DNA of 64,000 bases from contig JAJTEK010000027.1 in the NCBI GenBank assembly GCA_021299695.1, positions 1 to 64,000 on the forward strand, in the 5' to 3' direction. The position numbers and the translations under genes were made by a program. Below the pieces are notes generated by a model. It made no database searches. It was not told the origin of the DNA and was given only the letters and a program-made list of their open reading frames with translations. Shown one piece after another: positions 1-62,025 of this stretch (the stretch's first letter is position 1; every line of letters begins with the position of its first letter). The stretch comes from Pirellula sp. (lineage in GTDB: Bacteria; Planctomycetota; Planctomycetia; Pirellulales; Pirellulaceae).

Positions 1-81
1 CTTCGAGGCAAGTCACTTGAGGAACTCCAGCAGCGTGCCCAATTCCTCCAGGAAATGATTCGCAACCGCCCCTCGTCATAG
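1..81 (+). CDS. C-terminal end of a probable Rpn-family / PD-(D/E)XK nuclease family transposase-like protein (truncated by window edge)
   Basis: Open frame 1 from base 1: LRGKSLEELQQRAQFLQEMIRNRPSS*; resembles the tail of the full-length protein at 2812-3717 and has the same position immediately 5' of an RHS fragment. Confidence 0.5.
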   Translation, partial: LRGKSLEELQQRAQFLQEMIRNRPSS

Positions 82-96
82 CCCGACGGTTCAATC

Positions 97-810
97 ATGA
101 ATAGTCGTACCCACCTCGTCGACTTGAGTTACACCTGGGATGCCAACAAGAACAAGACCTCCGAGTCGATCACCGGCGTGATGAGCGGCTATGGATTTAC
201 TTCCCGGGGAACCACCTACGACTTTGAGGATCGTCTGACGGGCTATGCCCGCGCCAGCGGAACGTTCAACCAGTCCTGGAATCTGACCAGTGTTGGAGAC
301 TGGACAAGCGTGACGACCAACGGCATCGCACAGAACCGAACCCATGGTCCAACGCACGAGCTGCTCACGGCCGGTGGATCGAGCGTCGTGACGGATGTCA
401 GAGGAAACATGACATCGATTCCAGCCACGCTACGTCCTGCTGGAGCCACGACAGCTCTGCTCATGAGCTGGGATTTCGATAACAAGCTTGCATCGGCAGA
501 CATCGACGCCAACGGGACGGCGGACGTGAGTTTCCAATACGATGCCCTAGGACGTCGCGTCGCTAGAACAGGCACTGGTGGATCTTTTGTGTTTGTGCAG
601 ATGGACCAGCAGACAATCGCAGACTACCCAGTCGGCGGTGCTGCGAGTACTCCAACGTATCGCTATGTCTATGCGAGCTACATCGAGGAACCGGTCGTCC
701 GCAAAACCGACGGTACCGGCGGAACGTTGGTGTACTTCCATCGCAACCATCAATACTCCGTCACCGCTGTAACGACATCGGGATGCGACGCTGGGACTGC
801 ATCACTTTAG
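97..810 (+). pseudogene. RHS/YD-repeat core fragment, 5'-truncated, frameshifted by an internal deletion relative to the paralogue at 3740-5176
   Basis: YTWDANKNKTSESITGVMSGYGF... and FQYDALGRRVARTGTGG...TYRYVYASYIEEPVVRK match the second copy; terminates early after TTSGCDAGTASL where ~124 nt present in copy 2 (about 4427-4550) are missing. Confidence 0.7.
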
Positions 811-820
811 GGCGCGATGG

Positions 821-1561
821 ATGAGCCCGAATGCGGGGAGATTCTTGGGGAGGGATCCGACTGGGTATGAAGGAAGTCCAAATTCTCTGTATGAATACGT
901 GCGAGCTCGTGCTCTTATATCCATGGATCCGAAGGGTTTATATCAGATAGCAGATTGCGTTCCTGATGATTACGATGAGCCTCCCGATCAGCCATGGCAG
1001 GGTTCTTGCAATATCAAGGTAAGATGTTTCGGTTTTCCAATCAATTCTCCCTTTTCGGCATTTTGCGGTAATAAAGGGATGCATTGTGGGCTGATCCTGG
1101 ATGATGGTGCAGGCCGCGTTGTAAGCCTCGATGGATCAGGAGGTTGCGAGAACAACTTTGATTGGCAGGAACCTGCTTATCAACCCCCCGGACAATTTAC
1201 TGGCCCTGTTGGGCAATACCCGACCACTGTTTGTGAATGCTTGCGGCAAAAAACCAAGACATGGAACAGCATAAAAATCCCAAGAAGTACGACTGGTTGC
1301 AATAGCAACACGTCACTGCGATGTCTCGCTGGGGCGTGTGGGCTCTCCGGCTCCATCAGCAATGGAATGCCTGGTAATGGCTGTACGCCATTTCGTTATG
1401 ATTCCTGTAAGGAATATAATTGCACTCTGTGGTCAGATCCGGTGGTATGTTTTGGTAAGTCAAAGCGGGTATGCTTTGAGCACGAAGACTTCTGTACATT
1501 TTATTGGCGACATGCTAACAATGGTACTGTTCCTACTGAACCGAAGGCGAACGAGTTTTGA
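821..1561 (+). CDS. RHS tip: end of RHS-associated core (GRFLGRDPTGYEGSPNSLYEYVRARALISMDPKGL) plus Cys-rich C-terminal putative toxin domain; out of frame with the upstream core
   Basis: Core end motif followed by unique domain with HCGLILDDG and CKEYNCTLW motifs; separate frame from 97-810. Confidence 0.55.
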   Translation: MSPNAGRFLGRDPTGYEGSPNSLYEYVRARALISMDPKGLYQIADCVPDDYDEPPDQPWQGSCNIKVRCFGFPINSPFSAFCGNKGMHCGLILDDGAGRVVSLDGSGGCENNFDWQEPAYQPPGQFTGPVGQYPTTVCECLRQKTKTWNSIKIPRSTTGCNSNTSLRCLAGACGLSGSISNGMPGNGCTPFRYDSCKEYNCTLWSDPVVCFGKSKRVCFEHEDFCTFYWRHANNGTVPTEPKANEF

Positions 1562-1598
1562 TTCAGTGCTGTGAGGCGAACCCTAAGAATCCGAAATA

Positions 1599-2093
1599 TT
1601 GCTTGAAATTCAGATTGTAAAGAGCGGCCCATTGAAACTTCCTCGCTTTTCAGTGCGAACGTTATTGATTTTCACCATAATATGTGCAGTAGCTTCGCTG
1701 GCAATTGTGCGAGGCCGGTACATGGTTGGTTTAAAGGAACGCTGGAGAGCTATTGGGGGTTGGCTTCCCAAGGACGTTTTTGAGGAATTTCTGCCACCCC
1801 TTGGTTGGCCAGAGGTGCGTCTCAGTAATCCGCACGGTAACTATACGACCAGTCATATTCGAGATTTATTGGAAGAGATGACAACCTATGGTGGAGCAAC
1901 GCGCGTAGTGATTCGACGACGATATGTCGAGAAAATAGATGGTCCCGAAACGAGTACCGACGACAAATTGATCGAGATACTCTCGAGGGTGCAAGCACGG
2001 GAGGTCGCCTTAGTTGGGTGGAACGAAAAAGATGAAGTTGTCGGTCGTCTACCAACTCAAATAAAAAAATATTCGTTCTATATTAAGGAATAG
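1599..2093 (+). CDS. Small protein with N-terminal TM segment, possible cognate immunity protein
   Basis: RFSVRTLLIFTIICAVASLAIV hydrophobic segment; immediately downstream of the RHS tip; TTG start assumed. Confidence 0.45.
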   Translation: MLEIQIVKSGPLKLPRFSVRTLLIFTIICAVASLAIVRGRYMVGLKERWRAIGGWLPKDVFEEFLPPLGWPEVRLSNPHGNYTTSHIRDLLEEMTTYGGATRVVIRRRYVEKIDGPETSTDDKLIEILSRVQAREVALVGWNEKDEVVGRLPTQIKKYSFYIKE

Positions 2094-2101
2094 CATTGTA
2101 A

Positions 2102-2237
2102 CCGTTCACCTAAAGACTAACGCTCCATGAGTCAACGACAGTCCGCCAGAGCGGTGAGGGACCATGGGCCTGGCCGGAGGAGGGTCGGTTGACAGCGAGT
2201 AGCAATGGAGTGCATCAAGCGTCAGAGGGACGCGATG
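2102..2237. repeat. 136-bp foldback repeat, copy A
   Basis: CCGTTCACCTAAAGACTAACGCTCCATgAGTCAACGACAGTCCGCCAGAGCGGTGAGGGACCATGG...GTCGGTTGACAGCGAGTAGCAATGGAGTGCATCA; near-identical to 5519-5654. Confidence 0.85.
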
Positions 2238-2595
2238 TGGTGGGCGTCAGAATCGAAGTGCTCGCGATTTTGCAGTTTCGCAACTTTCCCCAATGTTTTC
2301 CCTTAGATGATTTTGCTCTGCGCACGATTCTAAAGACCGCTTTGAACATCGCGATGCACCGAAGTTGTGACGTTTTTGAGTGATCGAAGCGAGCGTTTTT
2401 CTGCTTCGCAAGCGATTTTTTCGCACTGGGCGCGGAGCTTCTCCTATCGCGATTTATCCTAAAACCGCCAATGCACACGCTCAGATTCGAAGAGAAAAGA
2501 CCAAGCCGTAAAAAGCTCACCAATAGCTTTCCGTTTGGAAGAAAGCTTGATTCTCTATACCTGGTATCAATCACTAGCCTCCATTTTCCACCCTG

Positions 2596-2740
2596 GCTGT
2601 TTCCCTTTGCGTCCTTTGCGCCTTTGCGGTGAGATCCAAGATACCCGGGCAGCAACGAGGGAACGCCAAAAGAGGGGCTCGCGCCAAGGCACCAAGCTCA
2701 CAAAGGATCGTACCAAACGAGGAAAGGTTTGTGGTATTAT
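2596..2740. repeat. Foldback CTTTGCGTCCTTTGCGCCTTTGCGGTGAGA-type dispersed repeat, copy 1
   Basis: Arms CCCTTTGCGTCCTTTGCGCCTTTGCGGTGAGA ... CTCGCGCCAAGGCACCAAGC..ACAAAGG; similar to 7909-8045. Confidence 0.6.
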
Positions 2741-2811
2741 TGGTCTTGCTCCGAAGATCGGAGCGATGTGTTCGCGGAAAACATCTCTTGGCTAAGAAGG
2801 GAGATTGCCAG

Positions 2812-3717
2812 ATGCAGCCGATTGGTATCCGTCCTACCAACGATTTCGCATTCAAAAAAACGTTTGGGTCTCCCGAGAACAAGGTGGCTTTGATCAGCTT
2901 GCTCAACGCGATCCTCACGCTACCGGTTCCAATCGTCGATGTGACGATCGAGAACCCGTACAACTTGCAGGATTTCCAAAACGACAAACTGTCGATCCTG
3001 GACATTCGTGCCGTCGACCAGCGGGGTGCGATCTACGATGTCGAGATGCAGTTGTCGACGCATTCAGGGCTTGTCAAGCGGATCGTTTTCTACGGGTGTG
3101 AAGTCTATGCAGGTCAACTCAAAGCCGGGGACGATTATTCCAAACTTAAGCCGGTCTATTCGATCTGCCTGCTGGAGGGTCAACTTTGGGACGATTCTCC
3201 TAAGGTGCATCATGCGTTTCGGCTGGTGGATCAGGATTCGGGGCGTTTGCTCGGGGAAACTTTAGAAATTCACACGCTCGAGCTTGGGTGGTATAATCTC
3301 CAGGAGAGCGAGCTTGAGACCGCTAGCCTGCTGGACCGTTGGCTGTATTGGTTGTTGCACGCCCACCAGTACGATGCACAGACGCTTGGGAGTTTGTTCT
3401 CCCAGCCAGAGTTCCAGAAGGCGACCGACTCGATTGACCGGATTGCCAAGAAGACCGAGGACAAAGCCATGTACGATACACGTGAAAAAGCCATCCGCGA
3501 CCAGCAATGGATCCTGAACGCCGCTCGCCGCGAAGGCCGCGAGGAAGGCGAGATCAAAGGCCGTGAGGAAGGCGAACTTTTCGGCAAGATACGCATGTTG
3601 CAAAATTTACTGAGTCTACCTCAGTCGACCGACCAGGAGCTGCACCCCAGATCGAGGACCGAACTTGAGACGTTAGCAACTGAACTACAGGCTCAGCTGC
3701 GGAAGCGGATGACGTAG
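2812..3717 (+). CDS. Rpn family recombination-promoting nuclease / PD-(D/E)XK nuclease family transposase
   Basis: MQPIGIRPTNDFAFKKTFGSPENKVALISLLNAIL...LDIRAVDQRGAIYDVEMQ (D...ExQ nuclease core)...YARQLKxGDDYSKLKPVYSICLL-like block and C-terminal EGREEGEIKGREEGE repeats; ATG at 2812 preferred over the longer ORF from 2629. Confidence 0.85.
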   Translation: MQPIGIRPTNDFAFKKTFGSPENKVALISLLNAILTLPVPIVDVTIENPYNLQDFQNDKLSILDIRAVDQRGAIYDVEMQLSTHSGLVKRIVFYGCEVYAGQLKAGDDYSKLKPVYSICLLEGQLWDDSPKVHHAFRLVDQDSGRLLGETLEIHTLELGWYNLQESELETASLLDRWLYWLLHAHQYDAQTLGSLFSQPEFQKATDSIDRIAKKTEDKAMYDTREKAIRDQQWILNAARREGREEGEIKGREEGELFGKIRMLQNLLSLPQSTDQELHPRSRTELETLATELQAQLRKRMT

Positions 3718-3739
3718 TTTCTATAGGAATCCGGTCCAC

Positions 3740-5176
3740 ATGGCGACCTTCTGCGACATGACCTACACCTGGGACGCGAACAAGAACAAGACTTCCGAGT
3801 CGATCACGGGAGTCATGAGCGGCTACGGGTTCACATCCGCCGGGACAACCTACGACAACGAAGATCGCCTTACGGGTTTCTCGCGCGCTGCGACCAGCGG
3901 CCCTGCGTTACTCTCTCAGTCCTGGAGCTTGACCGCCGTCGGGGACTGGACCAGTGTCACGACGAACGGCACCGCACAAAGCCGCGCGCACGGCCCAACG
4001 CACGAACTCCTGACCGCCGGTGGCCAAAACGTGGCGACCGACGTCAAAGGAAACATCACCACCCTCCCGGTCAACCTCCGTCCCGCCGGTGCCACCACCG
4101 CGATGAATCTCACCTGGGATTCGGACAACAAGCTTCGGTCAGCGGACATCGATGCCAACGGGACGGCGGACGTGACTTTCCAATACGATGCGCTCGGACG
4201 CCGAGTCGCGCGATCCGGGACGGGTGGCTCGGTGGTCTATGTGCAGATGGAACAGCAAACGATCGCGGACTATCCAGTCGGCGGCGCAGCAACGACTCCA
4301 ACCTTCCGATACGTCTACGCAAGCTACATCGACGAACCGGTCGTCCGCAAAGGCGCAACCAGCACCAGCACCGCACATTTCTATCACCGCAACCATCAAT
4401 ACTCCGTCACCGCGATCACCACCTCCACAGGCACCATTGCCGAGCGTTACGCCTACTCGGCCTATGGTCAACCGACGATCCTCGATGCTTCGGCTTCGGT
4501 GCTCAGCTCCTCGGCGATCAACAATCGCTACACGTATACTGGCCGTGAGTGGGACGCAACGCTGGGTTTGCATCACTTCAGGGCGAGGTGGATGAGCGGG
4601 TTAACGGGAAGGTTCCTTTCAACAGATCCTGTAAAGTACCTGGGTAGTGAATGGAATCTTTTTGCATATTGTGAGAACAAAAGTCTTAATCGAAGCGACC
4701 CGTATGGTTTGTGCTCTCGTTGGCCCCTATGCGGTGGAAAGCCCCTTGATAGACGCTTTAACTGTTGTGAAAATGATCAACTCGTGCCTCTAGTCTCGTT
4801 GTGGCGATGTGTACAAAACAAGTACCTTGGCCTCGGAAGGTGTTGGGACTATACAGTTGGATGGGTTGCATGTCCATTCGGTCTCAGGGCTCGACACTCC
4901 TATGTCTGCTGTGATGGCTCTAACAAGAACTGTTTTGATGCAGACAACATGCGCCCCCGGGCAATGTGGCCAAGCTGCCGTGGCCCCTATTGGCAGCCCT
5001 ATGATCCAGCCAAAATCGACACAGCATGGATACACTTTGACGGCACATGCACGGAATGGAAAGTGTGTCCTGCTGAAAAAGAAAGCTATTGCAAACCAGC
5101 AGTCATTCAGTTTTCGTTGTTTGGCCCGAATTGTCACCATAATGCAGGCAATTGGGGAGGAACTTGGAATTGGTAG
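3740..5176 (+). CDS. RHS repeat core fragment (5'-truncated) with Cys-rich C-terminal putative toxin domain
   Basis: YTWDANKNKT...RYAYSAYGQPTILDASASVLSSSAINNRYTYTGREWDATLGLHHFRARWMSGLTGRFLSTDPVKYLGSEWNLFAYCENKSLNRSDPYGL (RHS-associated core end) followed by CSRWPLCGG...ARHSYVCCDG...FGPNCHHNAGN. Confidence 0.8.
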   Translation: MATFCDMTYTWDANKNKTSESITGVMSGYGFTSAGTTYDNEDRLTGFSRAATSGPALLSQSWSLTAVGDWTSVTTNGTAQSRAHGPTHELLTAGGQNVATDVKGNITTLPVNLRPAGATTAMNLTWDSDNKLRSADIDANGTADVTFQYDALGRRVARSGTGGSVVYVQMEQQTIADYPVGGAATTPTFRYVYASYIDEPVVRKGATSTSTAHFYHRNHQYSVTAITTSTGTIAERYAYSAYGQPTILDASASVLSSSAINNRYTYTGREWDATLGLHHFRARWMSGLTGRFLSTDPVKYLGSEWNLFAYCENKSLNRSDPYGLCSRWPLCGGKPLDRRFNCCENDQLVPLVSLWRCVQNKYLGLGRCWDYTVGWVACPFGLRARHSYVCCDGSNKNCFDADNMRPRAMWPSCRGPYWQPYDPAKIDTAWIHFDGTCTEWKVCPAEKESYCKPAVIQFSLFGPNCHHNAGNWGGTWNW

Positions 5177-5505
5177 ATGACGAGCGATTCGCCATATTAT
5201 CAAAGTCAGGCTTTATTCAGCTTCTTGATAAACTCAGTACAACAGCACGTATGTTCGTACTCATGACGGCGCTTGCAATTAGTGGGATTTCCTTGGAACG
5301 GTTGCTGTCAAGCGAGACAAACGTCGAGAAGTTTATCTGGCTTATAGGCTCACTTGTTTGTTGGATGACTGTTCTCGCACTTCTATTACATGGGTGGAAC
5401 AGAGCAGGGGTGGTGGAGCGGAAGATCCTTGCTGTATTAACCATTATTGTGATTGCTCCAAATCTTCTAACTCTCTTCGTTATTTGCGTCTTATGCTTCT
5501 TGTAA
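5152..5505 (+). CDS. Small multi-TM protein, putative immunity protein
   Basis: Overlaps the toxin stop; hydrophobic stretches MFVLMTALAISGISL, FIWLIGSLVCWMTVLALLL, ILAVLTIIVIAPNLLTLFVICVLCFL; start codon uncertain. Confidence 0.5.
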   Translation: MGRNLELVDDERFAILSKSGFIQLLDKLSTTARMFVLMTALAISGISLERLLSSETNVEKFIWLIGSLVCWMTVLALLLHGWNRAGVVERKILAVLTIIVIAPNLLTLFVICVLCFL

Positions 5506-5518
5506 TTGCAAACGTTTT

Positions 5519-5654
5519 CCGTTCACCTAAAGACTAACGCTCCATCAGTCAACGACAGTCCGCCAGAGCGGTGAGGGACCATGGTCCTGGCCCAAGGCGT
5601 GTCGGTTGACAGCGAGTAGCAATGGAGTGCATCAGGCGTCAGAGGGACGCGATG
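5519..5654. repeat. 136-bp foldback repeat, copy B
   Basis: Same length and sequence layout as copy A (2102-2237). Confidence 0.85.
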
Positions 5655-6125
5655 CGTTGAGTGTCAGACCCGAGAAAAACTCGGGTCTCCCGGTGAAAGA
5701 GTTTGCACCGTGCACTGCGGATCCTTTACAATGCAATGCATGGTAGCCTCATCGGTTCCGAGCAAATTATCGCTCTGTGCAGATCGCGCGCATGCTCGCG
5801 CGGGAGATTCGCACGCATCGAGTGGCATCGATGTTGCGTGCCCCACGACTCAAAACGTCCTTGCCATCGCTTCGCCCCACGAATTGCAAGGGGATTCTTG
5901 GCCGTCATCTTCGACTGGCACTAGTTCCTCCTGTTGCATCCAGAAATTGGGAGATCGATTTCGATCGATGCCCCGCTTCCAGAATGCTTGCGAGTGGATC
6001 TGGAGACGGCCTGAGAGAGCGGCGACTTAAATTATCGGTTCTTCCGTAGCCGTACAGGACGTTAAAGAGGCAATGTACCCAGTACGCCTTCGGCTGACTG
6101 CTAAACGATATAGGCTTGGCAGCCT

Positions 6126-6827
6126 CTATGCCTTGCTGTTGCGCCGTGCGCGGTAAGCCATACCTGAAGCACCGAGTCCAAAGATCAACACTGAGCTCGG
6201 CTCGGGTACACCTGATTGCCAGACTCCCCCTGAGCCGTTTCCGAAACGCCCGGTCAAAACAAGATTGCCGGCGCTGGTGGTAAAAGAAGATGTAGTCGGT
6301 TCGTCGAAGAAGAAAGAATCACCACCGACATAAGATCCGAGATTGGTCAGGCTGTCATAAAGCCCGTCTGTCCCACCGCGACTTCCTCCCGCAAGAAGCC
6401 CTGCACCGTAATTCAAATTGGTTCCCAAATCCCAATGGAGAATACCTGCACCTTGGAACGGACCACTTGGTTCATTCACGAAATCCGCCGACACAACAAC
6501 GTATTTAAATCCTAAGTTGGTGGTCAAGGTTGCCGAGTAAACCGATGAGTTATCGAAAATCTCAAGGGTCACCGGATCTGTGTTGGGAAGAACTCGGGTG
6601 GGTAAGGCAAACGAACTGTTGCTAGTAAACGATTGAATGACGCTGTTATCTGCTGTGGTGCTGACCCTCCAAGTCGCATTCGTGAAGCTGTTTGAACCCA
6701 AGGTACCAGAGATCAATGAGTTCGGTCCTCCGGTGATCGAGAAGCTGATAACACTCGCCATGGCATGGCCCGAAACAAAAAGCACGAGCACCAGAACCAG
6801 GAACGTTTTCAAGTACGAAGATCGCAT
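6126..6827 (-). CDS. PEP-CTERM sorting domain-containing protein
   Basis: Signal peptide MRSSYLKTFLVLVLVLFVSGHAMAS; C-terminal GVPEPSSVLIFGLGASGMAYRARRNSKA. Confidence 0.85.
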   Translation of the reverse strand: MRSSYLKTFLVLVLVLFVSGHAMASVISFSITGGPNSLISGTLGSNSFTNATWRVSTTADNSVIQSFTSNSSFALPTRVLPNTDPVTLEIFDNSSVYSATLTTNLGFKYVVVSADFVNEPSGPFQGAGILHWDLGTNLNYGAGLLAGGSRGGTDGLYDSLTNLGSYVGGDSFFFDEPTTSSFTTSAGNLVLTGRFGNGSGGVWQSGVPEPSSVLIFGLGASGMAYRARRNSKA

Positions 6828-7193
6828 GATATCTCTCAGACTGTTAGGACAACGGTATTCAATCAAGCCTTTAAAATACCAAATTTTGATCTCGGTGCAA
6901 CTAGATAGCTCCTCATCATCACAGGTGCCCGTGGAGCCGACCACCGGACTCGTCCGGTGGAGGCGTAACTTCCAGCTACTTTCGTGACACGGGTGCAAAG
7001 AACGATAGAATGGCAAAACAAGTTTCTGAAATCGAAAATCCTATGGCCCAAGTGGAATCGCAGTCGGAGTCGCTCGAAACCACTTGGATTGATCAGCGGG
7101 GTATCATTCGAACCGATGCGGGCGTGCCCGCAGGATGGTGGGGTCTGGATGCCCCCGTCTGAGCACAGATCAAAAAGTAACTCGGACCAAACA

Positions 7194-7738
7194 ATGCGAT
7201 CAATCCCATTATTTCACGTTGCTTTGCTATTGGTTGTTTCTTGGTTCGCGGCGGACTTGGCCGATGACTTGCGACCTCAGCGACTGCAATCGACTCTATC
7301 AAATGTTCAGCCGATGACGGGAATCGTTTTGTGGACAACCAACGAGGCTGCTGCAACCGCGCCGATCCAATTGGAGTATGCGTACCTGAAATATAGTCAG
7401 ATCGTACAGGAGAGCGGTGAGTACGACTGGGAGCCCGTTGAGCGTCTTCTCGATGAGGTTGCAAGTCGAAAACACCAAGCGATCCTCGATTGGCGTTTGT
7501 GCAAGCCGGATTTGGGCTGTGGGCCGAATATCATATCTACGATGGCCCAATGAAACTTGGTCTGACTTTTCCAGACAAAGACTTCCAACTTGTATCTATA
7601 AAGCAACTGGCTTCCAATTTTCGGGAAACGCCCTGGATGATTTCAATTGACGCCGCAGGAGAGCATACCCCCTTTGCAAAAGACACCATGCTTTCAGAGG
7701 TGCAGTTCGGACTCTTCGACAACTCGTTCACCGAAAGA
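7194..7738 (+). pseudogene. DUF4832-like (glycosidase-like) gene remnant, frameshifted and 3'-truncated
   Basis: VQPMTGIVLWTTNEAAATAPIQLEYAYLKYSQIVQESGEYDWEPVERLLDEVASRKHQAILDW in frame 3, then AFVQAGFGLWAEYHIYDGPMKLGLTFPDKDFQ...WMISIDAAGEHTPFA...FGLFDNSF in frame 2; joined at ~7486, ends in a foldback repeat. Confidence 0.6.
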
Positions 7739-7857
7739 CTAACGCTCCATCAGTCAACGACAGTTCGCCAGAGCGGTGAAGTCAGGCGGGAGGCTTGATG
7801 CGTGAGGCTGGAGGAAGAAGAACCCAGCGACAAGAATTGAGTGCGTCAGGCGTCCTA
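7726..7857. repeat. Foldback repeat, copy C (diverged in its 3' half)
   Basis: GTTCACCGAAAGACTAACGCTCCATCAGTCAACGACAGTTCGCCAGAGCGGTGA matches A/B; 3' half shares GAGTGCGTCAGGCGTC. Confidence 0.75.
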
Positions 7858-7908
7858 GGAACGCTCTTGGAGTCAATCACGCGTTTCGAGTTGCTCGCAT
7901 GGCTATCT

Positions 7909-8045
7909 CCCTTTGCGTCCTTGGCGCCTTTGCGGTGAGACTCAGGTTTTCGGTGAGCCTCAGCAACCCGGGCAGCTACCAGGTCCGCCAAAAGAGGGTT
8001 TCTCGCCAAGCCGCCAAGCCCGCAAAGGCCAAGCTCACAGTGGAT
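7909..8045. repeat. Foldback CTTTGCGTCC..GCCTTTGCGGTGAGA-type dispersed repeat, copy 2
   Basis: CCCTTTGCGTCCTTGGCGCCTTTGCGGTGAGA ... TTCTCGCCAAGCCGCCAAGCCCGCAAAGG. Confidence 0.65.
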
Positions 8046-8186
8046 CGGGAATAACAAATCGCCTGGAAATACACTTGCTGGAGTTGCCCAAGTACGCTCC
8101 TTTGGACGATAATCCACCGATTGCAGATCCGCGCGATCCGTCATCGGAAAGAAAAACAGTAGTCCCCCTTGGAAAAAGTTTGCAAC

Positions 8187-11100
8187 ATGCATCGAATCCC
8201 TAAGGCTTGCCTTTTGAATCGTCTGCTCTCCGTGGGGATGTCCGTGGTCGCCACAGGAGCCGTCAGCAGTTGTCTTTGGGCCGAGGAACTCGATCAGAGG
8301 GCCGCCGAACCGAAGTCACCGCCAGAGTGGTACGGGCAGACGATTCGGTCCTCGGCTTGGCGATCTCCAGCGGACGAACAAGCAGGCTTCCATGTCCCCG
8401 AGGGGTTTGCAGTCGAGTTGGTTGCAAGTGAACCGCAAATAGCCAAGCCCATGAACATGGCTTTTGATGCGCGGGGTCGTTTGTGGCTGACCCAAAGCGT
8501 GCTCTATCCGTTTCCTGCGAAAGCCGATACGCCCAGCTCCGATACGCCCAGTTCCGAAGCGACCAGTTCCGATGCAATTGTGGTCCTTGAGGACAAAGAC
8601 TCCAACGGCACGATGGAAACCAAGACCGTGTTTGCCGATGGTTTGAACATACCGATTGGACTATTGCCTTACCAAGACGGCGTGATCGCCTTTTCGATCC
8701 CCAATCTCTACCATTTGAGGGATACCGATGGCGATGGGGTCTGCGACGAGCGCAAGGTGATCCTTGGACCATTCGACACGACGCGCGATACGCACGGGAT
8801 GGTCAATGCGCTCCGCGATGGGCAGGACGGCTGGATCTACGCTTGCCATGGCTTCAACAACGTCTCAAAAATCTCGGGGACCGACGGCCATGCGATCGAG
8901 ATGACCAGCGGGAACGTCTTTCGATTCCGGCCCGATGGAAGCCGAGTTGAGTTGTACACCCAGGGACAAGTCAATCCGTTTGGGATGACCAGGGACAAGT
9001 ATGGGTTTTGGTTTTCGGCCGATTGCCATAGCAAACCGATCACACAATTGCTCCGAGGTGGCTGCTATCCGAGTTTCGGTCGCCCGCATGATGGACTCGG
9101 GTTTGTCCCCTCGACGATGGAACATTTGCATGGGAGCACGGCCATTTCCGGGGTCGCTTACGTCGCCGGGACTTCGTTCCCGCAGGCCTTTGAAGGGAAT
9201 TTGCTCAGCGGCAACGTCATGACCTGCAGGATCAATCGCAACGGGCTTGAGTATTTCGGAGCGACGGCCAAGGCCGTCGAGTTGCCCGACCTCTTGACCA
9301 GCGAGGACCCTTGGTTTCGACCTGTCGACCTTCAGTTCGGCCCCGATGGATGTTTGTATGTTGCGGATTTCTACAACAAGGTCATCGGGCATTACGAAGT
9401 CCCGTTGGACCATCCGGATAGGGATCGGACCAGCGGGCGAATCTGGAGGATTCGGTACGTCGCTCAAGATCCGTCCAATGGCCCCAAGCCCCCAGCCCCC
9501 CGAGTCCAAGACGCAATCGGGGCGATTCGACCCTCCGAGCGGACTTACCAAGAGTCCATCGCGATTCTCGCCAAGCCGGTCGCTCAGGCGTCCGATCCGG
9601 ATTCGGCGATCGAGCGGCTCAGAGCCGTCGAGCGACTCGGTCAGATCGGAACCCTTGCCGATGCGGTTAGTCTTTTGGATCGGGTTCGTAGCGTCGATCA
9701 ACGCGATGCGATTCTCAAGCAAGCCCATTGGATCGCCTTGCGAGACATCCTAGGGCGCGAAGCAAAGCAGTCCGACGCATTCCCCGAGGAAGGGTTGATC
9801 GGTACGGAACTTGGCACCGACCGCTACCAACAGCGCATCGAGGACTTGCTCAAGGTCCTTCAAGCCGTCAAGGATCCCAGTGCGGCTCGCTGGTCGTTGG
9901 ATCTGATCGAAATCGCATCAAAGAAGTCAGGGCCAGGGCCCAAGACGGCCTGGCTCAAGGACGCACTGCTTGGTGTCGCAACGGCAGTCGACGAAAGCCA
10001 AATCCCTCGGGTTTTGCAATTGATCGATACGATGCTTGAGGAATCATCGACCAAGGCCGAGCAAATCCTTTTGATTGCCGAGTCGCAAAAACAGCGCAAC
10101 GGTAAGCTATCCCCCATCCTTGTCGAGTTGGGTCAGCAGTCTCTATCGCAAGCAGCAGGGGCATGGTTAACCCAAGCGGCAGCCGAAGATGTTCGACTAA
10201 CCGGATGGACTGCCCTTTCGGCCAAAGGTCGGGATGTACGTCCCTGGCCACTTGAGCAGCGTTCGCTCCAGGCAGAGAGCCACCCCAAGCCCCGAGAGCT
10301 GCCCGAGGGAAAAATACCGTTTTGGAGCAGCCTAGGGCTTACCGAACGCTACCAGGGAACTTGGAGCAGCGGGGTTTTCCTCGCCAAGGAAAGCTTGTCG
10401 TTTTGGGTCGTCGGTCATGATGGGAACCCCAATGAGCCCGAGCGGAAAGAGAATTATGTCCGCGTTTTGGTCGCCGGTTCACAGACGGGTGATTGGAGCG
10501 AGATTTATCGCGTTTATGCCCCTCGCAACGATGCGGCCCGGTATGTCCAAATCGATTTATCGCAGCACAAGGGTCAGTCGGTACGTATCGAGGTCGTCGA
10601 TGGATGCGGACAGGACAGTTATGCGTGGATTGGGATCGCCGATGTTTCTGAGCCAGGTTTAAAACGATCTGTCTTGCGGGACCGCTTCGACTCGATGGTC
10701 CGTTTAGCCAAGTGTTTTGGCTCATCGATCGTCGCTTTGGAACCATCGAGCCGGGCCGACTTCCTCTCCCAATGGCGGCAGCTCATAAAATCCGATCGAC
10801 TCGATTGCTTTTGTAAAGCGAACTTGCAACAATGGGTGCAAGGCCAAGAGCAACCGGTCCTTTCGGAGTTGGTTTCTTTGGTTGTCGAACGGGGTTTGGA
10901 GGATTTGCTGACCAAGCCGTATTTGCTGAACAAGCCGGATTTGCCGAACGGGCTAACGGCAAGCAAAGAGGGCAAGTCCTGGAGTTTCGATTGGGACTGG
11001 AGTACTGGGTCGGAAGAAACGCTTGGTGTTTTGTCGGAAGCTTTCGGAAAGAGGGCCGATGCAGCAACCCAGGAGGAACTGGTTTTGCGATGGTCGCGCC

Positions 11101-11726
11101 ACAGGGGTTCGATTGCGTTGATAGAAAGTTTGATACGGCGTGGGGCGTTGTCGAAAGAAACGCTTCGGGTCTTGCCCGCCTCCTGGTGGGACGCATTATC
11201 GGAGTCCAATGCCAAGCGGTTTTCGGATTTGAAGCCGCAGGGGGAGACCGATACGGCCCGCGCGGTGTTGGTCCAGAACAAGGCCCAGGCGGTCAAGCAG
11301 CTTGCAAGCGATCCGATGGTTGGAAAAAGGGTCTTCCAGGAACGATGCGCCACGTGCCATCAGCTTGGAGGCGTCGGTAAGGTCATCGGACCGCAGCTCG
11401 ATGGAGCGGTGGTGCGGACCGTAGAGAGGTTGTGCGAGGACATCCTGTGGCCCAACCGCAATGTGGACGAGGCGTTTCGAATCACCAATGTATTGATGGA
11501 GGATGGAGAGACAATATCGGGTTTGATACTCGATCGGACCGACAGTTCACTCGAGGTAGTCGACCAGGCAGGCAAATCCCAACGGTTTGCCCGCAGTGAG
11601 ATCGAGCAAGAAAAGATCAGCAAATTGTCCCTCATGCCGGGGAACTTTGAGGAACTCATCAGCGACGCGGAGCTCGCATCCTTGATCGGCTATTTGAAGT
11701 CGCAGCAACCCGAAAAGAAACCTTAG
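8187..11726 (+). CDS. PVC-type haem-binding CxxCH protein / membrane-bound dehydrogenase domain protein
   Basis: GFAVELVASEPQIAKPMNMAFDARGRLWLTQS...GPDGCLYVADFYNKVIGHYEVPLDHPDRDRTSGRIWR; C-terminal CATCH and LEDGETISGLILDRTDSSLEVVDQAG. Confidence 0.85.
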   Translation: MHRIPKACLLNRLLSVGMSVVATGAVSSCLWAEELDQRAAEPKSPPEWYGQTIRSSAWRSPADEQAGFHVPEGFAVELVASEPQIAKPMNMAFDARGRLWLTQSVLYPFPAKADTPSSDTPSSEATSSDAIVVLEDKDSNGTMETKTVFADGLNIPIGLLPYQDGVIAFSIPNLYHLRDTDGDGVCDERKVILGPFDTTRDTHGMVNALRDGQDGWIYACHGFNNVSKISGTDGHAIEMTSGNVFRFRPDGSRVELYTQGQVNPFGMTRDKYGFWFSADCHSKPITQLLRGGCYPSFGRPHDGLGFVPSTMEHLHGSTAISGVAYVAGTSFPQAFEGNLLSGNVMTCRINRNGLEYFGATAKAVELPDLLTSEDPWFRPVDLQFGPDGCLYVADFYNKVIGHYEVPLDHPDRDRTSGRIWRIRYVAQDPSNGPKPPAPRVQDAIGAIRPSERTYQESIAILAKPVAQASDPDSAIERLRAVERLGQIGTLADAVSLLDRVRSVDQRDAILKQAHWIALRDILGREAKQSDAFPEEGLIGTELGTDRYQQRIEDLLKVLQAVKDPSAARWSLDLIEIASKKSGPGPKTAWLKDALLGVATAVDESQIPRVLQLIDTMLEESSTKAEQILLIAESQKQRNGKLSPILVELGQQSLSQAAGAWLTQAAAEDVRLTGWTALSAKGRDVRPWPLEQRSLQAESHPKPRELPEGKIPFWSSLGLTERYQGTWSSGVFLAKESLSFWVVGHDGNPNEPERKENYVRVLVAGSQTGDWSEIYRVYAPRNDAARYVQIDLSQHKGQSVRIEVVDGCGQDSYAWIGIADVSEPGLKRSVLRDRFDSMVRLAKCFGSSIVALEPSSRADFLSQWRQLIKSDRLDCFCKANLQQWVQGQEQPVLSELVSLVVERGLEDLLTKPYLLNKPDLPNGLTASKEGKSWSFDWDWSTGSEETLGVLSEAFGKRADAATQEELVLRWSRHRGSIALIESLIRRGALSKETLRVLPASWWDALSESNAKRFSDLKPQGETDTARAVLVQNKAQAVKQLASDPMVGKRVFQERCATCHQLGGVGKVIGPQLDGAVVRTVERLCEDILWPNRNVDEAFRITNVLMEDGETISGLILDRTDSSLEVVDQAGKSQRFARSEIEQEKISKLSLMPGNFEELISDAELASLIGYLKSQQPEKKP

Positions 11727-11738
11727 TCTCCAGAACCT

Positions 11739-13046
11739 ATGTTCCGGTTCATTCACGCCGCCGACATCCATCTCGACAGTCCACTGCTGGGACTGAGAGC
11801 TTACGACTCTGCCCCCATCGAACGGTTGCGGACCGCTCCGCGTCGAGCGCTAGAGAACTTGGTAGATCTTGCGATTCGGACCAAAGTCGACTTTCTTCTC
11901 ATCGCGGGTGATGTTTTCGACGGGGACTGGAAAGACTACTCGACGGGTCAATTCTTCGTCAAGCAGATGGCCAAGCTGCGCGATTGCCGGATACCGGTTT
12001 ACCTGATCGCAGGCAATCACGATGCGGAGAACAAGATGTCCCGCTCGTTGCCTTACCCGGACAACGTGCATGTATTCGAGTCGAGTCATGCGACCACACG
12101 GCGGATCGAATCGATTCAGGTCGCAATCCACGGCCAGAGTTTTGCAACGCAAGCTGTCACTGAAGATCTTTCGATGAATTACCCCGCACAGGTTCCCGGA
12201 TGGTTCAACATCGGGCTTTTGCATACCAGTTGCACGGGTCGCGAAGGGCATGAAAATTATGCTCCCTGCACCCTCGAGGGGCTCGGGACTCGCAATTACG
12301 ATTACTGGGCCTTAGGGCATATCCACAAACGCGAGGTCCTGAGCCAAAAGCCCTGGGTGGTCTTTCCTGGAAACATCCAAGGCCGGCACGCCAAGGAGAC
12401 CGGGCCCAAAGGGTGCTATGTCGTAAGCGTCTCGGACCAGCAAGCGATCGAGGCAACCTTTGAACCCCTCGATGTGCTCCGCTGGGAGACCATCGCCTTG
12501 GATGTCGGACCGATCGGCGATTTGGGCGAACTGCCGAACTTGTTCAAAACCTCCTTGCAAGAGACCATCGATCTTTGCGAGGATCGGTTGCTTGCCCTTC
12601 GCATCGAGCTTCAGGGCCAAAGCCCCCTTCATCGTAAATTTCGAGTCGAACGCGAGCATATCCTCCAAAGCTGCCAATCGGTCGCGACAGGCTTATCGAT
12701 CGATGGGGTATGGATCGAAAAAGTCCTGTGCAATACGCGCATGCCCAATGAGAGCGACCAGCAGTCTGACGCCTCACAAGACGCGATACGAGCCATTATG
12801 GGGGTCTTTCAAGACGCCAAAACCAATCCCGATTTCTATAAGCAGCTTCAGTTCGACATGAGCACAGTACGGAGTAAAATCCCCTCGGAGCTGCGAACCG
12901 CCGAACTCGATGGGTACCTCGAGGGATCGTCGGTCCTGCTCGAGCAGGCTCAGGAGCGTTTGCTCGACTTGCTAGGAAGCGAATTTTCGCAAAGCGACTC
13001 TCCGAGAGCCGAGTCCTTGAAAAGCGGTTTGGGGGAAACGCGATGA
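11739..13046 (+). CDS. Metallophosphoesterase, DNA repair exonuclease (SbcD/YhaO-like)
   Basis: FIHAADIHLDSPL, DFLLIAGDVFDGDW, YLIAGNHDAENKM, WALGHIHKREV. Confidence 0.85.
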   Translation: MFRFIHAADIHLDSPLLGLRAYDSAPIERLRTAPRRALENLVDLAIRTKVDFLLIAGDVFDGDWKDYSTGQFFVKQMAKLRDCRIPVYLIAGNHDAENKMSRSLPYPDNVHVFESSHATTRRIESIQVAIHGQSFATQAVTEDLSMNYPAQVPGWFNIGLLHTSCTGREGHENYAPCTLEGLGTRNYDYWALGHIHKREVLSQKPWVVFPGNIQGRHAKETGPKGCYVVSVSDQQAIEATFEPLDVLRWETIALDVGPIGDLGELPNLFKTSLQETIDLCEDRLLALRIELQGQSPLHRKFRVEREHILQSCQSVATGLSIDGVWIEKVLCNTRMPNESDQQSDASQDAIRAIMGVFQDAKTNPDFYKQLQFDMSTVRSKIPSELRTAELDGYLEGSSVLLEQAQERLLDLLGSEFSQSDSPRAESLKSGLGETR

Positions 13047-17283: not shown

Positions 17284-18193
17284 TTCGGGAACCCACAGCG
17301 CGAATGATCTTGATATCGGTGCTGTCCGATACATAGGTGACAGAACCGTCGGCTTTGCCGAACATCGTTCCGCCAGCGTGGAAGCTACCAAAAGCGACCT
17401 CCATCAAATGTCCCTGGGTGGAGGGATCGATGACCGCAATGTTAGGTTGGACGAGCATGCTACCTGCAGCTTCGGTGAATTCGGTACCTCCAGTTCCTCC
17501 ATCGCAACGGCATGGATCTGCTTGAGGGCTGCCAAAGGCCCACCAATCCATTCCTTGACCGTCTTTGACGAATTCAGGATCGGTACGAGATTCACCGAAG
17601 AGGACCGTCCGGGACAATCCATCGGTGAAATCTCTAAGTTTGATCCGGCTGCACCCGAACATCGCACCGTCGAGGTTCAGCTCTTCGAAGGATTGGGTGT
17701 TGGGCAGCGGGCGGGTCGATGCGTCATCGGAGCTGACACGGCTCCCGCCGTTGGCTCGGTAGCTGATGGGGACGCGGTTAGCGATGCCGTTGTAATTCGC
17801 AGGAGCGAGGTTTGGGCATGAGGGGCACTGTAACATGGAGATTGGAGTTTGGCATGCCCGGTAATTGGGGCTTGCAACATTATCCCAATTCCCGACCCCA
17901 GACTCCGCAAAAATAAGCGTGCTGTAGAGGCTCGCTTGCTCGATCTGTGGCAGGATCGCTGCGCTCCAGAGCGTGCCGTGGTTATTCCAACCCGGAGGGA
18001 GCACCTTGAAGGAGCTTTCGTAATTCAGGGTCGCCAACGAGAGTTGTCGCATGTTGTTCGAGCAGCTCATCCGGCGAGCAGCCTCACGGGCTTGCTGCAC
18101 AGCAGGCAGGAGCAATCCGACGAGAACTCCGATGATAGCGATGACCACAAGCAGTTCCACAAGAGTAAAACCCTTACGACTTCGAAAACGCAT
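17252..18193 (-). CDS. DUF1559 domain-containing protein (prepilin-type N-terminus)
   Basis: [45 protein letters not shown]-x-G-G-x-x-F-G-x-A-D-G-S C-terminal motif. Confidence 0.95.
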   Translation of the reverse strand: MRFRSRKGFTLVELLVVIAIIGVLVGLLLPAVQQAREAARRMSCSNNMRQLSLATLNYESSFKVLPPGWNNHGTLWSAAILPQIEQASLYSTLIFAESGVGNWDNVASPNYRACQTPISMLQCPSCPNLAPANYNGIANRVPISYRANGGSRVSSDDASTRPLPNTQSFEELNLDGAMFGCSRIKLRDFTDGLSRTVLFGESRTDPEFVKDGQGMDWWAFGSPQADPCRCDGGTGGTEFTEAAGSMLVQPNIAVIDPSTQGHLMEVAFGSFHAGGTMFGKADGSVTYVSDSTDIKIIRAVGSRNGAETFDFED

Positions 18194-61609: not shown

Positions 61610-61627
61610 TCAACAGCCGATTGAAAA

Positions 61628-61729
61628 GCAAAGCCGCGCAGGCAGAAGAGAAGAATTAAACGCAAAGCCGCGCAGGCAGAAGAGAAGAATTAAACGCAAA
61701 GTCGCGCAGGCAGAAGAGAAGAATTAAAC
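61628..61729. repeat. Three tandem 34-bp repeats
   Basis: GCAAAG(C/T)CGCGCAGGCAGAAGAGAAGAATTAAAC x3, then GCAAAGTCGCAAAGGCGCAAAGACGCAAGG. Confidence 0.95.
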
Positions 61730-61869
61730 GCAAAGTCGCAAAGGCGCAAAGACGCAAGGAAGAAAAAAGAGAACGGCAAGGGACATTTTGGGGATCGAGT
61801 CCAGAGCCGGACGTAATCTTCAATCAATGACCGTCAGTACCCTTAGAGTTCTTGCACCTTACTCTTCCC

Positions 61870-62025
61870 CTCTCCTGCCTTTCCCTCTCCTGCCTTCCCT
61901 TTGCGACTTTGCGTCTTTGCGACTTTGCGTTTATTTCTTCTCCTGCCTTCCCTTTGCGACTTTGCGGCTTTGCGTCTTTGCGTTTATTTCTTCTCCTCCT
62001 TTGCGTTTATTTCCTCTTCTTCGCG
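61870..62025. repeat. Inverted arm of related repeat units (CTTTGCGACTTTGCG...TTTATTTCTTCTCCTGCC)
   Basis: Repeated TCTCCTGCCTTCCCTTTGCGACTTTGCG(T/G)CTTTGCG...TTTATTTCTTC, reverse-complement-like to 61628-61775. Confidence 0.85.

What the first reader, a model, noticed from the sequence alone, without database searches (positions are those of the whole stretch)
1..5654. Tandem 'Rpn nuclease + orphan RHS tip + putative immunity + foldback repeat' cassettes
The same order occurs twice in tandem: a PD-(D/E)XK/Rpn-type protein (tail at 1-81; full gene 2812-3717), an RHS core fragment starting at the same point in the repeat ((L/M)(S/T)YTWDANKNKTSESITGVMSGYGF), a unique Cys-rich C-terminus, a small TM-containing ORF, and a 136-bp foldback repeat. 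Neither RHS fragment has the long N-terminal YD-repeat part. Established: RHS loci diversify by swapping C-terminal tips through homologous core sequence, and E. coli Rpn proteins promote RecA-independent recombination. Inference: this is a reservoir of silent RHS tips in which an Rpn nuclease, directly coupled to each tip, could drive tip exchange. I am not aware of that coupling as a described system.
Basis: partly seen in the sequence, partly recalled or inferred. Interest (0 to 1): 0.8.

Follow-up and report, generated by a model that had tools for sequence, protein, structure and literature searches.

The report
Rpn nuclease–led orphan RHS tip cassettes
In a family of planctomycete bacteria, genes for a DNA-cutting protein (Rpn) are repeatedly found directly in front of, and probably read together with, cut-off ends of RHS toxin-type genes carrying interchangeable tips; this is a recurrent pairing not found described in the papers searched, but what the nuclease does there is not yet shown.

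Summary
The layout is real. Window 1-5673 holds two [Rpn – RHS core fragment – variable tip – small ORF – ~150-bp repeat] units. Unit 1 is cut by the contig edge and its RHS frame is broken; unit 2 is intact. The coupling is not one segmental duplication. Of 32 Rpn genes in near-complete genomes of other genera, 10 have an RHS core fragment starting within 600 bp 3' on the same strand; no other 600-bp bin has more than 3, and none is on the opposite strand. Two further samples agree. About a dozen junctions differ in Rpn type or RHS breakpoint, and an Rpn tree needs at least 11 changes. Tips have moved between Rpn chassis and are replaced on near-identical Rpn-core copies. Two points count against a 'silent reservoir'. 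RHS fragments tend to have an in-frame ATG just behind the Rpn stop (6/12 junctions within 22 nt; 0/24 in other frames). Eight genomes with these cassettes, this one included, show no full-length RHS gene with this core. I read them as Rpn-led, probably co-translated orphan RHS-CT cassettes whose tips swap through shared core. Rpn's role in exchange is unproven.

The parts
1..81 (+). 3' end of an RpnB-type gene (tail ..QEMIRNRPSS*), cut off by the contig edge
   Evidence: (85% nt match to C189 over 1-194); tail classes; (window = C129:1-64000)
97..943 (+). unit 1 RHS core fragment; ATG at 97 is 15 nt behind the Rpn stop; broken by an internal deletion and frameshift near 780
920..1561 (+). tip 1 (Cys-rich; no clear homologue in 241 family genomes)
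1599..2093 (+). small ORF with N-terminal hydrophobic stretch behind tip 1
   Evidence: no family match
2812..3717 (+). RpnA-type PD-(D/E)XK nuclease gene, intact, strongly conserved (dN/dS 0.04-0.13)
3740..5176 (+). unit 2 RHS-CT ORF (478 aa): short leader, RHS core to ~4714, tip 2 from ~4700; ATG 22 nt behind the Rpn stop
   Evidence: tip 2 92% identical in G177:C150
5152..5505 (+). small membrane-type ORF overlapping the RHS stop; immunity role not supported by selection (dN/dS 1.2)
5519..5673 (+). intergenic repeat copy 2
5664..5942 (+). remnant of the alternative, Rpn-free leader that elsewhere (C51, G177:C183, G170:C209) fronts RHS tips starting at NHQYSV
7725..7779 (+). left half of a third repeat copy
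8000..8137 (+). RpnB remnant: third, decayed unit

Best explanation
The units are Rpn-led orphan RHS-CT cassettes. An Rpn nuclease gene is followed within a few to ~200 nt, on the same strand, by the 3' part of an RHS gene (a variable length of core plus a tip), then in this genus a small ORF and a repeat. Shown: the order and strand are recurrent across several genera; RHS breakpoints and Rpn types vary, so such junctions formed many times; tips are exchanged between chassis, with identity breaks inside the core and at the tip start. Inferred: the RHS fragment is translated from the start codon just behind the Rpn stop, as the second gene of an Rpn operon, so the cassette works by itself and is not merely a silent tip store. 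Also inferred: new cassettes form by illegitimate joining of RHS 3' ends to the 3' flank of Rpn genes, possibly helped by Rpn's own DNA cleavage (as RpnA promotes RecA-independent recombination in E. coli), and tips are then swapped by ordinary recombination in the shared core.
For: Position- and strand-specific enrichment: 10 of 32 Rpn genes in near-complete genomes, 14 of 78 across GTDB, 19 of 85 hits in the genus, none on the opposite strand. Curated models confirm the 3' ORFs as Rhs_assc_core (8 of 9 over cutoff). RHS breakpoints lie at about -330, -54, 1, 5, 10, 41, 90, 175, 190-210 and 280 relative to the query. The RHS label needs 13 changes on the Rpn tree, at least 11 forced. In the RHS frame an ATG lies within 22 nt of the Rpn stop in 6/12 junctions against 0/24 in other frames. 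dN/dS of core behind Rpn is 0.11-0.19 and of Rpn 0.04-0.13. No full-length N-terminal RHS with this core in G000, G177, G162, G207 or G189, and only weak other-family hits in G123, G201 and G010. Tip 2 + ORF is 88-98% nt identical in G177:C150 on another junction class, while core stretches fall to 74-77%. Four dispersed ACE_PLA12 copies share Rpn and core and diverge at the tip.
Against: No expression data. Many units are decayed (unit 1, C189, C36, G189, G177:C159). The leader between Rpn and RHS in ACE_PLA12 is not clearly constrained (pN/pS 0.5-1.0), and the small ORF is not constrained. Core constraint could be a memory of full-length genes or of gene conversion with them. L223, L196 and L207 lack a usable start near the Rpn stop. 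Most Rpn genes are not next to RHS, and many orphan tips have other leaders. Nothing shows that Rpn acts on RHS DNA.
Confidence: 0.57

Rival explanations
1. One reading: a store of silent RHS tips, with each Rpn nuclease acting to drive replacement of the tip of a full-length RHS gene.
For: Rpn is coupled to tips. Full-length RHS followed by Rpn and an orphan tip exists in G195:C118 and G117:C4. Tips are exchanged. E. coli Rpn proteins raise RecA-independent recombination (PMC5350276).
Against: No full-length RHS of this core found in eight genomes that carry cassettes. In-frame starts behind Rpn. Junctions that keep only ~30 core residues. Equally prolific tip arrays without Rpn. RpnA has little or no sequence specificity (PMC5350276).
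Confidence: 0.13
2. Hitchhiking: Rpn genes and RHS fragments both collect in hypervariable islands; a few chance junctions were multiplied by tandem and dispersed duplication, with no functional link.
For: Some junctions are clearly copied (A1 in several genomes; four ACE_PLA12 copies). Many copies are decaying. Rpn genes are known to move with other elements (PMC10327210).
Against: Strict order and strand in every sample, no opposite-strand neighbour within 1.8 kb. About a dozen different junctions, and at least 11 changes on the Rpn tree. In-frame starts concentrated in the RHS frame.
Confidence: 0.19
3. Rpn plus RHS-CT is one defence or addiction module: an anti-phage Rpn toxin operon that has recruited interchangeable toxin tips as a second payload.
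For: Rpn proteins are toxin/intragenic-antitoxin systems with anti-phage activity (PMC10327210). Both genes are under purifying selection. The start codon sits behind the Rpn stop.
Against: No tip has a recognised toxin domain and the tip 2 model was uninformative. The putative immunity ORF is not constrained. PADLOC has no matching system.
Confidence: 0.11

Closest known systems
Orphan rhs-CT/rhsI modules of Enterobacteriaceae (Salmonella LT2 rhs orphan; PMC3967940)
   Same: 3' fragment of an rhs gene with part of the core and a different tip; tips exchange through homologous core
   Different: There the orphan sits behind a full-length rhs gene and usually lacks translation initiation signals; here it sits directly behind an Rpn gene, usually with an in-frame start, often in genomes without a matching full-length rhs
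Rpn (recombination-promoting nuclease, COG5464 / PF04754 / PF12784), E. coli RpnA-E (PMC5350276, PMC10327210)
   Same: PDDEXK_2 family with invariant D..ExQ residues, variable C-tails, multiple copies per genome, movement between loci
   Different: No RHS is mentioned in either paper; here Rpn is the 5' partner of RHS tips
Standalone toxin cassettes of polymorphic toxin systems (PMC3482391)
   Same: Toxin-type C-terminal modules kept apart from the full-length protein and recombined
   Different: No Rpn-type gene is described there as their partner in the passages read

Membership tests
Rpn / PDDEXK_2 nuclease family | match above curated cutoffs | tested here: met
   PF12784 194.7 bits (cutoff 27.4); TIGR01784 135.2 bits (cutoff 52.1)
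Rpn / PDDEXK_2 nuclease family | conserved acidic + ExQ active-site residues | tested here: met
   D64, E78 and Q80 invariant in nine diverse Rpn proteins; E. coli RpnA Q84 is a residue mutated in PMC5350276
Rpn / PDDEXK_2 nuclease family | DNA endonuclease and recombination activity | not testable with these tools
   needs purified protein and mating assays
Orphan RHS-CT/immunity module | RHS core domain without N-terminal region, plus variable tip | tested here: met
   TIGR03696 60.1 bits (cutoff 32.5); tips unrelated between units and copies
Orphan RHS-CT/immunity module | cognate immunity gene directly downstream | tested here: inconclusive
   ORF 5152-5505 is kept with tip 2 in G177 but dN/dS is 1.2
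Orphan RHS-CT/immunity module | displaced from a full-length RHS gene of the same core in the same genome | tested here: not met
   no N-terminal match in G000; also none in G177, G162, G207, G189; draft assemblies
Orphan RHS-CT/immunity module (enterobacterial form) | no translation initiation signal | tested here: not met
   ATG at window 3740 and 97; 6/12 junction classes with ATG within 22 nt of the Rpn stop
Insertion sequence / transposon | terminal inverted repeats around the unit | tested here: not met
   no inverted repeat of 25 nt or more in window 1-12000; shorter repeats and target-site duplications not tested
Structured RNA or foldback element (the repeat) | conserved pairing with compensatory change | tested here: not met
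   0 of 20 predicted pairs with a compensatory change; no Rfam match

The most novel reading that the evidence does not exclude
Rpn and an RHS C-terminal toxin tip form a standing two-gene system in Pirellulaceae and relatives, in which the nuclease both captures RHS 3' ends at its own 3' flank and is co-expressed with them, making a self-contained, reloadable toxin cassette independent of any full-length RHS gene.
Probability: 0.25. Interest if true: 0.85.

Novelty: new variant of a known kind. Interest (0 to 1): 0.62.

Why it matters
It would tie a widespread nuclease family of debated purpose to the spread of polymorphic toxin tips. It gives a concrete, testable gene pair, present in a named strain (Stieleria tagensis TO1_6, L217), for two open questions: what Rpn proteins do in their native setting, and whether orphan RHS tips are really silent. 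If confirmed, orphan tips would not need a full-length RHS gene to matter.

Tried and rejected
Single segmental duplication: rejected (other contigs, other genomes, different Rpn types and breakpoints). Simple insertion of Rpn into an intact RHS gene: rejected as a general account, since no N-terminal half of the same RHS was found directly upstream of Rpn in the loci inspected. Sequence-targeted homing at one site: not favoured because breakpoints vary widely and E. coli RpnA is not sequence specific. The repeat as an integron attC or structured element: no conserved integrase-type end boxes seen by eye, no covariation, no Rfam hit. Tip function: no Pfam, NCBIfam, PHROG or meaningful PDB match; AlphaFold2 of tip 2 with three sequences gave pLDDT 31, so no fold search was made. 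Leader constraint in ACE_PLA12 as proof of translation: tested, not found. Literature searches for Rpn with RHS: none found.
Full report
OBSERVATION. The window is the first 64 kb of contig C129 of a 5.49-Mb, 229-contig genome. Its left end is a contig edge inside a repeated Rpn gene. Two units lie in tandem. Unit 1: Rpn tail (1-81), RHS fragment (97-943, broken by a deletion and frameshift near 780), tip 1 (to 1561), small ORF (1599-2093), repeat (2102-2256). Unit 2: Rpn (2812-3717), RHS fragment with tip 2 (3740-5176), overlapping small ORF (5152-5505), repeat (5519-5673). Pfam and NCBIfam confirm the Rpn and RHS assignments. A third, decayed unit follows (repeat half at 7725-7779, Rpn remnant at 8000-8137). 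The repeat folds only marginally better than shuffles (z -2.26) and shows no compensatory changes among 17 copies.

SAME GENOME. The pattern recurs on other contigs: C18 (Rpn with one stop, then an RHS fragment), C189 (Rpn tail, then a broken RHS fragment), C36 (Rpn, then only the start of an RHS fragment), and C51 and C142, which end in the start of an Rpn gene. Most of these contigs break inside Rpn or RHS core, so the true arrays are longer. A search with the 1596-residue N-terminal part of a full-length homologue (G074:C128, 2114 aa) finds only a different RHS gene (C155, 33% identity). A full-length gene with this core is therefore absent or not assembled.

RELATED GENOMES. In 27 genomes of the genus I compared 85 Rpn hits with the RHS hits. 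Nineteen have RHS directly 3' on the same strand (domain-end gap mostly 150-570 bp, one at 1172 bp), five have RHS 5' on the same strand, and none has RHS on the other strand. A GTDB-wide scan for relatives of the Rpn alignment gave 79 loci. Among 78 Rpn genes with a complete 3' end, 16 RHS hits (14 genes) fall in the first 600 bp 3' on the same strand; every other 600-bp bin has at most three, and nothing lies on the opposite strand within 1.8 kb. That sample leans towards Rpn genes like the window's own, so I added a third: all PF12784 hits in 16 near-complete family genomes. Eight genomes have them; 10 of 32 Rpn genes have RHS starting within 600 bp 3' on the same strand, no other bin exceeds three, and none is on the opposite strand. 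Those 16 genomes were chosen partly because RHS loci had been seen in many of them, so this sample is blind to Rpn position but not to RHS presence.

JUNCTIONS. After the Rpn stop, RHS homology begins at very different core positions: about -330 (G195:C144), -54 (G195:C118), 1 (window unit 1, C189, G177:C200), 5 (window unit 2 and seven others in G123, G177, G074, G209 and G189), ~10 (UBA6172), 41 (ACE_PLA12, four copies), 90 (C18, G177, G123, G207, G201), 175 (G074, G010), 190-210 (G179, Stieleria tagensis, HKST-UBA42, MAG-47) and 280 (G183, G138, G155). Nuclease domains and C-tails of Rpn are shuffled: RpnA- and RpnB-type domains occur with the same tail and junction. On an Rpn tree of 63 proteins the RHS label needs 13 changes, at least 11 forced by well-supported branches, and is no more clustered than shuffled labels. 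So the coupling arose, or was lost and regained, many times. One locus (G123:C38, L157) shows the Rpn flank joined straight to the repeat with no RHS between.

START CODONS. For twelve junction classes I looked for ATG behind the Rpn stop in all three frames. In the RHS frame it lies within 22 nt in six and within 50 nt in ten; in the other two frames the counts are 0 of 24 and 5 of 24. In unit 2 the ATG at 3740 is 22 nt behind the stop, with an AGGAA upstream conserved in most class-A1 copies. Three classes have no usable start near the stop (L196, L207, L223). This differs from Salmonella, where orphan fragments usually lack initiation signals (PMC3967940).

SELECTION. Pairwise dN/dS is 0.04-0.13 for Rpn and 0.11-0.19 for the RHS core behind Rpn, including window against G177, neither of which shows a full-length RHS of this core. 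Tip 2 gives 0.36 and the small ORF 1.2, so an immunity function for that ORF is not supported by this test. The leader codons in ACE_PLA12 are not clearly constrained. Constraint on the core could also be inherited from, or shared by gene conversion with, full-length genes.

TIP EXCHANGE. Tip 2 occurs in only two other genomes of 241: 92% identical in G177:C150 and 37% in G209. In G177 it sits behind another Rpn tail and junction class; tip and ORF are 88-98% identical in DNA while neighbouring core stretches fall to 74-77% and the repeat to 64-82%. In ACE_PLA12, four copies at separate chromosomal sites share Rpn and core at about 87-90% and lose all similarity where the tip begins; their cores are mosaics. 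Tip 1 has no clear homologue.

ALTERNATIVE LEADERS. A second class of orphan tips starts at (N/Q)QYSV, behind a lineage-specific conserved leader and mostly without Rpn (C51, G177:C183, G170:C209; six copies in G105; about ten in G179; several in G205). Rpn is thus one of at least two 5' chassis for orphan tips and is not needed for tip arrays as such.

INTERPRETATION. 'Silent reservoir' fits poorly with the start codons, the constraint, the missing full-length genes and the minimal-core junctions. I favour Rpn-led, probably co-translated RHS-CT cassettes whose tips move by recombination in the core. That Rpn itself helps to make the junctions is plausible from E. coli work (RecA-independent recombination, nuclease with little sequence specificity; PMC5350276) but untested here. 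Rpn as a defence toxin with intragenic antitoxin (PMC10327210) leaves room for a joint defence role.

LIMITS. Many of the genomes are draft metagenome assemblies; no expression data; no tip has a recognised domain; one structure prediction failed. A literature search found no paper linking Rpn and RHS, but the library holds open-licence papers only.

Noticed in passing
L030 (G000:C51) 1-4700: A Y2-type (IS91-like) transposase ORF, a primase-like ORF and a tyrosine-recombinase ORF lie directly upstream of the leader that fronts an RHS tip; this may be a mobile element carrying the tip (assignments by eye).
   Followed up: no
window 5664-5942: The Rpn-free RHS-tip leader directly overlaps the end of the repeat but has no tip behind it here; it starts with a short perfect hairpin (GACCCGAG..CTCGGGTC).
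   Followed up: partly
G105:C1:2627729-2645456 (L088, L089): Three RHS tips spaced exactly 8654 bp apart in a single-contig genome of the genus: a recent tandem repeat of a tip unit.
   Followed up: no
L157 (G123:C38) around 3620: Rpn flank joined directly to the repeat (..GGAATCCAG|TTCACCTAAAG..) with no RHS between: looks like a cassette-free state.
   Followed up: partly
L127, L130, L093, L133 Rpn C-tails: Rpn nuclease domains and C-terminal tails are shuffled independently; the tail travels with the 3' junction.
   Followed up: partly
L191:5944-7596 (ACE_PLA12): A tip behind Rpn contains HELLH, a metallopeptidase-like motif; no family model matched.
   Followed up: no
window 61624-62020: Dense direct and inverted repeats; another repeat family at 18005, 36975, 39851 and 60743.
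   Followed up: no
L036 and L038 (G000:C132, C43): A second RHS family in this genome: two contigs share ~95% core DNA and carry different tips.
   Followed up: no
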